A stretch of 10,851 nucleotides of DNA from Methanoregula sp. (GTDB lineage: Archaea; Halobacteriota; Methanomicrobia; Methanomicrobiales; Methanospirillaceae): assembly GCF_002835825.1 (NCBI RefSeq), contig NZ_PIZH01000032.1, positions 1 to 10,851 on the forward strand, in the 5' to 3' direction. The translations under genes and the position numbers were made by a program. Below, piece by piece: positions 467 to 2,911 of this stretch; position 1 is the stretch's first letter, and every line of letters begins with the position of its first letter. Under the pieces are notes generated by a model. It was not told the origin of the DNA, searched no databases, and was given only the letters and a program-made list of their open reading frames with translations.

Positions 467-586
467 GTTGTACCCATGCGACCCCCCACACGGCGCCTTC
501 ACTGAAAACACTCAAAACTCCCTCGTAAATGTAGACATTGTGAGGAGTATTTTTAGTACGTCGAGCGGGGGGTCGCATGGGTACAA
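467..586. repeat. Inverted-repeat element with 20-bp perfect arms
   Basis: Positions 468-487 (starting TTGTACCCATGCG and ending in six C) are the exact reverse complement of 567-586 (six G, then TCGCATGGGTACAA). The arms enclose 79 bp holding further nested symmetry: ACTCCCTC against GAGGAGT, around an AATGT-AG-ACATT core. The whole could fold as a cruciform or RNA hairpin. The layout resembles a MITE or extragenic palindromic element with terminal inverted repeats, but I see no target-site duplication and no transposase. A genome-wide copy number would decide this. Confidence 0.7.
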
Positions 587-671
587 ACGGGATCCCGGCC
601 AATACTGCCCGTAAAAAAATGAACGATTTCCGGTGATAATCTTCCATATGGGCCGGGTCTGGCGGGATCAT

Positions 672-692
672 GTTGTACCCTTGTGACCCCCC
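672..692 (+). repeat. Third copy of the 21-bp repeat motif
   Basis: GTTGTACCCTTGTGA followed by six C matches the left arm at 467-487 in 19 of 21 positions and in the same orientation. It sits 85 bases after the right arm and about 155 bases before tfx. No facing inverted partner is visible nearby, so it is a solo arm. It could be a decayed element end or a protein-binding site shared with the arms upstream. Confidence 0.65.
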
Positions 693-845: not shown

Positions 846-1250
846 ATGAAGGACGGACTGCTTACCGAACGCCAGATGGAGGTACTGCGGTACCGCAAGC
901 AGGGGCTGACTCAGCAGCAGATCGCTGACATCATCTCAACGTCGAAGGCCAATGTCTGTACGATCGAGAAGAGTGCGATGGAGAATATCCGCCGCGCAAA
1001 GGAGACGCTTGAATTCCTTTACACGCTCGATGCAACGCATCTCTGCACCATCCCGTCCGGCACCGATCTTTTCAATGTCCCTGCAATCATTTTCGGGGAG
1101 GCCGAGAAGATCAATATCAAGGTAAAATATGATACCATCTCCCTGATCAACCGGCTGCGTGAGTCACGGGCACAGGCATGCAAGGCCCGGGTGGTCTGTG
1201 AAGATATCATCGTTTACATAACTGACCAGGGAGAGTTATATTTCGGATAA
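846..1250 (+). CDS. tfx: Tfx-family DNA-binding transcriptional regulator
   Basis: This 134-residue protein starts MKDGLLTERQMEVLRYRKQG, followed by a helix-turn-helix (LTQQQIADIISTSKANVCTI, about residues 21-40), a layout typical of Tfx. The C-terminal part contains a GTDLFNVP motif near residue 72 and ends in a short beta-like segment. Tfx was described in Methanothermobacter as a protein binding the fmdECB region, which encodes molybdenum formylmethanofuran dehydrogenase; the target here is unknown. I chose the ATG at 846, preceded by GAAGGTG at 834-840, over an in-frame start at 726, because family members begin close to the LTERQ motif. The divergent neighbour is another methanogenesis gene, mtd. 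The promoter is unclear: GTTTAAG at 817-823 is a weak TATA candidate. Repeats and hairpins upstream are candidate regulatory sites. Confidence 0.85.
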   Translation: MKDGLLTERQMEVLRYRKQGLTQQQIADIISTSKANVCTIEKSAMENIRRAKETLEFLYTLDATHLCTIPSGTDLFNVPAIIFGEAEKINIKVKYDTISLINRLRESRAQACKARVVCEDIIVYITDQGELYFG

Positions 1251-1300: not shown

Positions 1301-1316
1301 GCATATATTTATATGC
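1301..1316 (+). promoter_or_regulatory. Palindromic TATA promoter element
   Basis: GCATATA-TT-TATATGC is a perfect 7+7 palindrome around two T residues and includes ATTTATAT, a good archaeal TATA box. It lies 51 bases after the tfx stop and predicts a plus-strand start near 1336, where the sequence becomes GC-rich and hairpin-dense. It is the strongest promoter-like sequence upstream of the ribosomal operon. The symmetry could also make it an operator. Confidence 0.65.
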
Positions 1317-1335: not shown

Positions 1336-1782
1336 GGAAGCCGATAGGAGGTTATCCTCTCCAGATAAGCATATCCCCCCGACGGGGGCATGCCCGTTCT
1401 GGGAACGGCGGGACCATACATCCGGACACTGGAGTGAGGGTCCTGCCGTGGGAAAACCTTGATTGGTGGATCCCCGTGTAACAACGGGGTTATCCCGAGA
1501 AGGAGTTGTGATTCGTCACAACAGGCTGACAGAGTGGGTCTGATCAGGCGCATGGGCGAACGTTCGTGCAACGAGCCCCTTCTTCGTGAGGTCGTACGAC
1601 CAAACGAAGATGCGCCATTGTCAGGATCTTCTTTCGCGAGACAGGAATGCTGGTGCACACCGGCAGAGCAGTGGGACATATCCCCTGCGCAAATCCGATA
1701 CGGGTGAAATTCGTCCGCAGTCAGCAGTGCAGCGTATCCAAAAAGGATCCCCTGCACCGCCTGAACTGCCCCGTCGTTTTCT
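1336..1782 (+). ncRNA. Candidate large structured RNA of unrecognised family
   Basis: About ten stems are visible by eye: CCTCTCCAG (1356-1364) with 1429-1439 (two-base bulge), enclosing CCGTTC/GAACGG (1394-1408) and CCCCC/GGGGG (1376-1388); GGATCCCCG with CGGGGTTATCC (1468-1495); GTTGTGA-TTCG-TCACAAC (1505-1522), a UUCG tetraloop; GGCGCAT (1547-1553) with ATGCGCC (1610-1616), enclosing hairpins 1554-1578 and 1582-1609 as a three-way junction and extended by CTGA/TCAG (1540-1543, 1621-1624); GCTGGTG/CACCGGC (1649-1664); GCAG-GGG with CCC-CTGC (1668-1688); GTGCAG/CTGCAC (1727-1757). A strong TATA element precedes it and a short T run (1777-1780) may end it. I found neither the SRP RNA helix-8 signature nor a canonical RNase P CR-I, so the family is open. 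It could instead be a leader of the ribosomal operon. Confidence 0.55.
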
Positions 1783-1897
1783 CCCGTCGCGTGTTGGCAT
1801 CCGGAACCTGCAAAGGTTTTGGAAAAGTCTCGGATGAATCTCTCAAACGTGTCGCAATGAGAACAACCTACACGCAAAAGTCAGGATGGATTAATAC
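1783..1897 (+). promoter_or_regulatory. Leader immediately upstream of the ribosomal operon
   Basis: These 115 bases separate the structured-RNA candidate from rpl3. No clear TATA box is visible at a suitable distance. The only ribosome-binding candidate is AGGATGG at 1883-1889, eight bases before the ATG, which matches the consensus only in part. The bases GGATGAATCTC (1832-1842) can pair with GAGGTTATCC (1348-1357) with one bulge, so this stretch may belong to the same RNA as the upstream structure. Confidence 0.35.
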
Positions 1898-2911
1898 ATG
1901 CCAAAAATCAACAGACCACGCCGTGGCTCTCTTGCATTCAGCCCGAGAAAGCGCGCAAAGAGCCACATCCCGAAATACCAGTCGTGGCCCTCAGTCGAGG
2001 GAGCACCGATCCTCCAGGGATTTGCCGGATATAAAGTGGGTATGACGCACGTTGTCATGGTGGACGACCACAAGAGCAGCCCGACCGAGGGCAAAGAAAT
2101 TATGGTCCCCGTCACCGTCATCGAAGTCCCCGCAATGAAAGTAGCAGCGATCCGCGCCTACAGCAAGGATACCTACGGCAAACACGCGTTCACCGAACTC
2201 TGGGCAGAACAGCTCGATGGCGTCCTTGGGCGCCGTATCAACCTGCCCAAGGAATACGACCGGGATGCAGCCATAAAGAAATTCTCGGATGCCGTTGCCG
2301 CGGGCACGGTTGCCGAGATCTATGCACTTGCCTACACCCAGCCGGCAGCAATGTCCGGTGTACCGAAGAAAGTCCCCGACCTCATGGAGATCAAGGTCGG
2401 CGGTGCAGACATCAAGAAGCTCTTCGAGTTTGCCCGGGGACTCCTCGGAAAGGAAGTCGGGTTAAGCAACGTCATCCAGACCGGTGCCTATGCAGACATT
2501 ACGGCAATCACCACCGGTAAGGGCACCCAGGGCGCAGTCAAGCGCTGGGGTGTTGCACTGCGCAAGCGCAAGCACGCGGTCGGCGGCAAGAAGCGCCATG
2601 TCGGTACCCTTGGACCCTGGAACCCCCACCACATCCGCTGGGAAGTCCCGCAGATCGGTCAGCTGGGGTACCAGCAGCGTACCGAGTTCAACAAGCGTAT
2701 CCTCAAGGTCAGCGAGAACGCAAGCGAGATTACGCCTGCCGGTGGATTCCTCCACTACGGTGTGCTCAAGAACCCGTACGTGCTCGTCAAGGGATCCATT
2801 CCCGGACCGGTCAAGCGGCTGATCCGTATCAGGCCCGCAATCCGCCAGGGAGAACATGTCGTCAGGATGCCGACAATCCAGTTCGTGAGCGTCCAGAGCA
2901 AGCAGGGATGA
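1898..2911 (+). CDS. rpl3: 50S ribosomal protein uL3
   Basis: This 337-residue protein is the first gene of the ribosomal cluster, at the usual archaeal full length. The N-terminus [20 protein letters not shown] is typical of archaeal uL3. The family core is seen as [13 protein letters not shown] (about residues 207-219), then PWNPHHIRW with tryptophans at 241 and 248, [14 protein letters not shown], and [18 protein letters not shown] near residue 298. In the large subunit, uL3 helps nucleate assembly and sends an extension towards the peptidyl transferase centre. The start at 1898 is fixed by the conserved N-terminus. The next gene, uL4, begins after six bases. The promoter is uncertain; the nearest convincing TATA element is about 580 bases upstream. 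Confidence 0.97.

What the first reader, a model, noticed from the sequence alone, without database searches (positions are those of the whole stretch)
1336..1782. Large hairpin-dense RNA candidate with its own strong promoter
Seen: about ten stems in 450 bases, several perfect and seven base pairs long, including a UUCG-capped hairpin and a three-way junction (GGCGCAT/ATGCGCC enclosing two hairpins, one with a GA/AA internal loop). A palindromic TATA box lies at the right distance upstream. No convincing protein is coded on either strand. Known: abundant structured archaeal RNAs of this size are RNase P RNA and SRP RNA. I see no CCGGAAGG-like SRP helix 8 and no canonical GAGGAAAGUCC of RNase P. 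GAGGGTCC (1436-1443) and GATGAAT (1833-1839) are only weak echoes of RNase P CR-I and CR-V. Inference: this is either a strongly divergent known RNA or an undescribed structured RNA next to tfx and the ribosomal operon.
Basis: partly seen in the sequence, partly recalled or inferred. Interest (0 to 1): 0.75.

Follow-up and report, generated by a model that had tools for sequence, protein, structure and literature searches.

The report
Ribosomal leader RNA outliving its gene
The hairpin-rich stretch is the long leader of the messenger RNA for ribosomal proteins in a methane-making archaeon, and it appears to be what is left of an RNA-methyltransferase gene whose protein was lost while a regulatory RNA hidden inside the gene was kept.

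Summary
In detail: window 1336-1897 is a structured RNA, but not RNase P, SRP or a free-standing gene. It is the ~560-nt 5' leader of the rpl3-rpl4-rpl23-rpl2 operon of Methanoregula. Covariation supports a larger core (1492-1668) and a 5' domain absent from Rfam (1336-1491).

The unexpected part is evolutionary. In 100 of 100 genomes where I could place both, RF03135 lies inside an intact gene for the SPOUT methyltransferase PF02598. In those genes synonymous sites are conserved over the RNA, and one arginine codon is AGG in 37/37 haloarchaea versus 14/1052 elsewhere. In the order Methanomicrobiales only 4 of 198 genomes keep PF02598, yet 159 of 198 keep the RNA core. The leader still carries frame-broken PF02598 codons. 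The tree fits repeated loss of the protein with the RNA retained, though regain is not excluded.

The likely function, feedback by L4 (or L3) on its operon, is inferred, not shown.

The parts
846..1250 (+). tfx, upstream gene; same order tfx - leader - rpl3 in relatives
   Evidence: TIGR00721 120.1 bits, cutoff 60.25; synteny
1301..1316 (+). TATA-like promoter element GCATATATTTATATGC, about 25 nt before the predicted RNA start
   Evidence: sequence; conserved block in 28 Methanoregula IGRs; TSS is inferred
1336..1897 (+). whole 5' leader (predicted start GGAAGCC to the base before the rpl3 ATG)
   Evidence: 1325-1900 has similar DNA in 37 of 60 genomes, its own included, 33 of them of this genus; fold z -5.66
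1336..1467 (+). 5' domain, four helices, not in Rfam; found in Methanoregula and one near genus (g15)
   Evidence: 63 double-changed cells vs 20.6 shuffled and 16-23 slid; distribution among 46 sources
1346..1357 (+). AGGAGGTTATCC, Shine-Dalgarno-like; in intact relatives a GRGGTWATC stretch precedes the PF02598 start, so probably a relic of that gene's ribosome site
   Evidence: sequence of L032-L035 starts; homology by eye, role inferred
1472..1489 (+). variable hairpin CCCCGT/ACGGGG with visible compensatory changes
   Evidence: alignment A2, read by eye, not counted
1492..1668 (+). core RNA (model R1), order-wide
   Evidence: 190 bits in own genome; 159 of 198 order genomes; covariation
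1505..1522 (+). UUCG-type hairpin GTTGTG-ATTCGT-CACAAC
   Evidence: invariant in 27 Methanoregula; 6 of 7 pairs with two-sided changes across the order
1540..1624 (+). RF03135 L4-Archaeoglobi ribosomal leader (the three-way junction)
   Evidence: 44.3 bits, E 2.5e-6
1649..1664 (+). hairpin GCTGG-TGCACA-CCGGC at the end of the core
   Evidence: 4 of 5 pairs with two-sided changes in Methanoregula, 5 of 5 across ORF-less genomes
1466..1579 (+). relic of PF02598 coding sequence, REGVVIRHNRLTEWV*SGAWANVRATSP, with a stop
   Evidence: tblastn with the L035 protein, E 4e-5 in a set of 87 sequences
1620..1640 (+). relic of the TVR-I-SRD codons (GTCAGGATCTTCTTTCGCGAG), in another frame; the corresponding stretch is highly constrained in the intact genes
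1495..1499 (+). CCGAG, 5' side of a possible long-range pairing
1829..1833 (+). CTCGG, 3' side of that pairing, beginning 69 nt before the rpl3 ATG
   Evidence: 26 of 27 Methanoregula have an exact complement, 4.2 expected; invariant, so no covariation
1848..1874 (+). invariant hairpin CGTGT/ACACG upstream of the rpl3 start
   Evidence: 5 pairs never vary in 28 sequences, so no covariation evidence either way
1898..2911 (+). rpl3 (uL3), first gene of the operon
   Evidence: TIGR03626 482.6 bits
2918..3664 (+). rpl4 (uL4), product is the predicted ligand
   Evidence: TIGR03672 353.7 bits

Best explanation
Supported by the calls: 1336-1897 is a long structured leader upstream of rpl3-rpl4-rpl23-rpl2. 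Its core is the RF03135 ribosomal leader plus flanking hairpins. That core lies inside the coding sequence of a SPOUT methyltransferase gene (PF02598) in other Halobacteriota, and the window retains broken codons of that gene. Inferred: the RNA was a control element nested in the gene before rpl3; in most Methanomicrobiales the protein was lost, probably several times, while the RNA core and its place before rpl3 were kept, and Methanoregula and a near genus carry an added 5' domain. Inferred mechanism (about 50% for L4, 20% for L3, the rest another ligand or signal): when free L4 exceeds rRNA it binds the core and lowers translation or elongation into rpl3, perhaps through the CCGAG/CTCGG contact that would tie the core to the rpl3 start region.
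For: RF03135 above gathering score; rpl3 found in 98 of 100 loci L032-L131. Covariation in 41 ORF-less genomes, 206 double-changed cells vs 56.4 shuffled and 15-61 slid, and in 36 with the gene, 150 vs 49.2 and 19-37. RF03135 inside PF02598 in 100 of 100 genomes with both places compared. Synonymous conservation over the RNA 1.52 vs 0.92 outside in 22 non-haloarchaeal genes (0 of 10000 permutations) and 1.31 vs 1.00 in 37 haloarchaeal ones (1 of 10000). Arg codon AGG in 37/37 haloarchaea vs 14/1052 elsewhere. PF02598 in 4 of 198 order genomes, R1 in 159 of 198 and weakly in 10 of 14 of the 39 others tested locally. PF02598 tblastn hits in 65 of 87 ORF-less loci on the plus strand, 0 hits on the minus strand. 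Since the protein is gone and the RNA stays, that protein is not needed as ligand there.
Against: No expression or binding data for this organism. The L4 assignment rests on precedent in Eckert and Weinberg 2020, who rate the motif borderline ('?'), and I found no 23S similarity above shuffles. A4 and A5 were fitted to the tested structure, so their counts lean towards it, and the shuffle control does not keep relatedness (the slide control does). 4 of 14 locally tested genomes showed no R1 match. The long-range contact and the 3' hairpin are invariant and carry no covariation. One loss plus regains fits the tree as well as repeated losses (4 changes).
Confidence: 0.8

Rival explanations
1. 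The ligand is not L4 but uL3 (the first gene) or another molecule; the leader is still a cis-regulator.
For: rpl3 is the first ribosomal gene after the RNA in the loci checked; the L4 call in the literature is by precedent only.
Against: No positive evidence for another ligand; the leader does not resemble 23S in my test, so the test favours none.
Confidence: 0.4
2. A free-standing trans-acting non-coding RNA with its own promoter, ending before rpl3.
For: Own conserved TATA region and start; very long and ornate for a leader; low conservation at about 1668-1785 would allow an end there.
Against: rpl3 follows in 98 of 100 loci (L097 ends at a contig end, L099 is a sub-threshold RF03135 match); conserved sequence resumes at about 1786 and is found up to the rpl3 ATG, with a weaker stretch at 1803-1817; in other Halobacteriota the core is part of a coding sequence.
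Confidence: 0.08
3. RF03135 is a coding artefact and the window holds only a decaying pseudogene.
For: Every RF03135 match that could be compared with a PF02598 place is inside that gene (100 of 100).
Against: The core is among the best conserved parts of the leader in genomes without the ORF, with compensatory changes; synonymous sites in intact genes are constrained there.
Confidence: 0.03
4. Divergent RNase P or SRP RNA.
For: Size and stem density only.
Against: Both RNAs are found elsewhere in the genome at 203.7 and 165.4 bits; no such match here even at E 5.
Confidence: 0.01

Closest known systems
RF03135 L4-Archaeoglobi ribosomal leader (Eckert and Weinberg 2020, PMC7247131)
   Same: 1540-1624 matches over the gathering score, same operon (rplC, rplD, rplW, rplB), three-way junction
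   Different: Published lineage is Archaeoglobi, rated borderline; here it is widespread in Methanomicrobiales, sits in a larger core and, in Methanoregula, behind a 5' domain; its nesting inside PF02598 genes is not stated in the parts of the paper I saw
PF02598 / COG2106 SPOUT methyltransferase gene (structure 1k3r; human C9orf114/SPOUT1; yeast Upa1/Upa2)
   Same: same locus upstream of rpl3; window keeps its broken codons 1466-1579
   Different: no open reading frame in the window and no match in the (about 90% complete) genome
S10-operon leader of E. coli bound by L4 (recalled)
   Same: leader of an L3/L4/L23/L2 operon, L4 the regulator
   Different: no structural or sequence relation tested or claimed; much longer here
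RNaseP_arch RF00373 and Archaea_SRP RF01857
   Same: size range
   Different: both found elsewhere in this genome

Membership tests
RF03135 L4-Archaeoglobi r-leader | covariance-model score over the gathering threshold | tested here: met
   44.3 vs 34.5 bits at 1540-1624
RF03135 L4-Archaeoglobi r-leader | upstream of an operon containing rpl4 | tested here: met
   rpl3, rpl4, rpl23, rpl2 follow
RF03135 L4-Archaeoglobi r-leader | covariation supporting the stems | tested here: met
   with shuffle and slide controls
RF03135 L4-Archaeoglobi r-leader | binds L4 and represses the operon | not testable with these tools
   prediction only in the parts of PMC7247131 that I saw
PF02598 methyltransferase gene | intact open reading frame matching the profile | tested here: not met
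   0 candidates in own genome; stops and frame shifts
PF02598 methyltransferase gene | recognisable homologous codons (relic) | tested here: met
   tblastn E 4e-5 at 1466-1579; plus strand only across 65 of 87 loci
RNase P RNA / SRP RNA | match to RF00373 / RF01857 | tested here: not met
   no match in the window; one match each, on other contigs
free-standing ncRNA gene | own 3' end before the next gene | not testable with these tools
   no transcript data; conserved sequence from about 1786 to the rpl3 ATG

The most novel reading that the evidence does not exclude
A regulatory RNA embedded in the coding sequence of a predicted RNA-methyltransferase gene (a dual code, conserved across Halobacteriota) has outlived that gene, several times over: in Methanomicrobiales the protein was discarded and the gene body turned into a pure 5' leader of the ribosomal-protein operon, to which Methanoregula and a near genus added a new structural domain.
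Probability: 0.72. Interest if true: 0.8.

Novelty: new variant of a known kind. Interest (0 to 1): 0.7.

Why it matters
Ribosomal leaders are normally thought of as untranslated. Here a published leader family lies inside a protein gene in all 100 genomes in which I could compare the two, so many archaeal genes may carry two overlapping messages. The Methanomicrobiales are a natural knockout series: the protein is gone from 194 of 198 genomes while the RNA remains in most, which separates RNA-level from protein-level selection without an experiment and argues that the lost enzyme is not the ligand there. It also gives a concrete route by which a gene becomes a long untranslated leader, and gives a borderline Rfam family much stronger support.

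Tried and rejected
RNase P and SRP: rejected. Mimicry of 23S rRNA: six segments of the leader aligned to the 23S of a same-genus genome score no better than letter shuffles (19 to 91 of 100 shuffles as high). The best local match of the core, TCGCGAGACAGG to TCGTGAGACAGG, appears from its context to lie near the m3U site proposed for COG2106 (PMC2584109), but it is below the shuffled mean and the GAGAC part is not conserved in most haloarchaeal genes, so I do not use it. A small upstream peptide at ATGAGGTTATCC: rejected, because the ATG is absent in the window, L003 and L020. The 5' domain outside Methanoregula: of 46 sources only the three g15 loci stand out (80, 48.1 and 20.8 bits); noise on the wrong strand of the window reaches 18.6 bits, so the 20.8 is weak and the others (17.5 bits or less) mean nothing. 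The 3' hairpin: invariant, neither supported nor refuted. Literature on whether the nesting and gene loss are in print: (listings and starts of abstracts); nothing listed describes it, but the supplement of PMC7247131, which explains the '?' rating, could not be read here and may mention the overlap.

Rows dropped: L009 (contig end) and L024 (short gap) before the genus alignment; L028 (an N) and identical copies from A1.

Full report
What is there. It reads tfx (846-1250), a 647-base gap, then rpl3, rpl4, rpl23 and rpl2. A TATA-like block at 1301-1316 precedes a conserved GGAAGCC at 1336, which I take as the transcript start. From there to the rpl3 ATG at 1898 is 562 nt. The fold is far more stable than shuffles (z -5.66).

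Known part. Rfam finds one match over threshold, RF03135 L4-Archaeoglobi, at 1540-1624. Eckert and Weinberg 2020 (PMC7247131; I saw abstract, outline, sections 5 and 12 and search passages) describe it as an r-leader of rplC, rplD, rplW, rplB operons in Archaeoglobi, ligand L4 by precedent, rated borderline; the Rfam 14 paper (PMC7779021, passages) shows it as an example family. RNase P and SRP RNAs lie elsewhere in the genome.

More than the known part. DNA similar to 1325-1900 occurs in 37 of 60 genomes, the window's own included. Of 30 loci (L002-L031), 29 show both tfx and rpl3 in that order and one (L009) ends before rpl3. In 27 Methanoregula sequences the core 1492-1668 has 48 cells changed on both sides of a pair, against 12.8 in shuffles and 3-12 when slid. 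The 5' domain (1336-1491, 28 sequences) has 63 against 20.6 and 16-23, including a helix in which all six pairs have two-sided changes. Of 46 sources searched with the 5'-domain model, only Methanoregula and three loci of a near genus (g15; 80, 48.1 and 20.8 bits) stand out; a wrong-strand match of 18.6 bits shows the noise level.

The surprise. Reading the leaders of other families, two of those printed (L033, L034) proved to run inside an open frame. That frame is PF02598, a SPOUT RNA methyltransferase (188.5 bits; solved relatives 1k3r and human C9orf114). Of 106 RF03135 places and 128 PF02598 places that I compared, 100 genomes have both, and in 100 of 100 the RNA is inside the gene (two of these are the order members G042 and G051). 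PMC2584109 (one passage seen) already notes that COG2106 genes sit in ribosomal-protein operons of diverse archaea.

Dual coding. In 59 distinct intact genes I compared same-amino-acid codons between sequence pairs, corrected for codon usage and for each pair's overall similarity. Over codons 108-152 of the L033 gene, which lie within the stretch holding the RNA, identical synonymous codons are 1.52 times expectation in 22 non-haloarchaeal genes (0.92 outside; best non-overlapping window 0.98; 0 of 10000 column permutations as high) and 1.31 in 37 haloarchaeal genes (1.00 outside; best non-overlapping window 1.15; 1 of 10000). Without the four Methanomicrobiales the first figure is 1.48. In haloarchaea the best 45-codon window starts earlier, at codon 82. 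The stretch was chosen after looking at the profile, but it coincides with the RNA. The clearest single case is the arginine of the T-V-R motif: AGG in 37 of 37 haloarchaeal genes against 14 of 1052 arginine codons elsewhere in the same genes; the nearby serine is TCG in 37 of 37 against 283 of 685. In the 22 other genes the site is arginine in 18, AGG in 16 of these against 120 of 461 elsewhere. Pair counts in 36 genomes with the gene also support the structure (150 against 49.2 and 19-37; alignment fitted to the model, many haloarchaeal matches covering only part of it).

Loss of the protein. Within the order only 4 of 198 genomes have PF02598, from 3 genera in two families; the control rang in 2 of 14 named genomes, Haloferax and Sulfolobus. 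The RNA core is found in 159 of 198, RF03135 alone at E 0.001 in 112 of 199. Of the 39 without an R1 match I tested 14 locally: 10 have a weak match and 4 none; 11 of the 14 show tfx upstream of rpl3 at 492-987 nt, 3 have no tfx in the stretch held. PF02598 proteins searched against 87 ORF-less stretches upstream of rpl3 (76 distinct, some genomes twice) give 65 with a plus-strand hit at E below 0.1 and none on the minus strand; the hits concentrate on the codons that overlap the RNA, and frames are broken. The longest plus-strand ORF in the 76 is at most 195 aa, median 86, against 280 or more in the four intact loci. Core lengths in 27 Methanoregula do not keep a frame (14, 7 and 6 sequences for remainders 0, 2 and 1). 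Pair counts in 41 ORF-less genomes: 206 against 56.4 and 15-61 (fitted alignment).

How often. A tree of L3 plus Tfx (73 rows, quick method, SH-aLRT support, some long and gappy rows) puts the four intact loci in two families, among ORF-less neighbours; the label needs 4 changes, at least 3 by well-supported branches. Losses alone would need about six events by my own reading of the drawn tree; one early loss with regains at the same locus is not excluded. The intact genes begin with GGAAACC, GAAGCC or GGAAGCC followed by TATGRGGTWATC, which matches by eye the window's GGAAGCCGATAGGAGGTTATCC, so the RNA start and the ancestral ribosome site seem inherited too.

How it probably works. Supported: conserved promoter region, RNA structure, operon, nesting, relic. 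Inferred: L4 or another operon protein binds the core and lowers expression of its operon. A contact between CCGAG (1495-1499) and CTCGG (1829-1833) is possible: an exact complement lies 65-70 nt before the start codon in 26 of 27 Methanoregula (4.2 expected; in the one miss, L023, my script read two bases off). Of 41 order-level sequences 19 have one (6.6 expected): all 15 with CCGAG, and 4 of 26 without it. It does not covary, so it is a candidate, not a result. Because no methyltransferase gene of this family is found in these genomes, it is unlikely to be the ligand there. What the methyltransferase does in archaea is unsettled: PMC2584109 proposes m3U2619 of 23S, PMC1829167 (passages) leaves it open, and its yeast relatives Upa1-Upa2 mark the earliest pre-60S (PMC8994135, passages).

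Limits. The supplement of PMC7247131 could not be read and may note the overlap with the gene.

Noticed in passing
window 468-692: TTGTACCCATGCGACCCCCC (468-487) and its near-complement GGGGGGTCGCATGGGTACAA (567-586) enclose about 80 bases upstream of tfx, with a partial third copy at 673-692; read by eye, looks like a small repeat or miniature element.
   Followed up: no
window 1346-1357: AGGAGGTTATCC is nearly a full-length Shine-Dalgarno sequence (anti-SD recalled) with no ORF behind it; in intact relatives the same spot precedes the PF02598 start.
   Followed up: partly
L245 (23S rRNA of G033) rRNA positions 2626-2637, and window 1634-1645: TCGTGAGACAGG vs TCGCGAGACAGG, apparently near the m3U site proposed for the lost enzyme in PMC2584109; not above shuffles.
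   Followed up: partly
phylum sample: PF02598 was found in 128 of 245 genomes; the 117 without it are mostly not listed, so whether families outside Methanomicrobiales lost it too, and with or without the RNA, was not checked.
   Followed up: no
PMC5496347 (passages): A DUF171 gene (HQ2843A, 346) stands in the table of most highly expressed genes of Haloquadratum walsbyi, level with rps12 (346), which would fit an abundant nested leader RNA; whether it is the gene next to rpl3 was not checked.
   Followed up: no
G120:C2:407764-407870, G156:C52:3557-3663, G136:C24:50588-50676 (L099): Weak RF03135 matches below the cut-off (32.6, 30 and 30.1 bits); L099 shows no rpl3 nearby, and G136 has its R1 match on another contig, so these may be chance.
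   Followed up: partly
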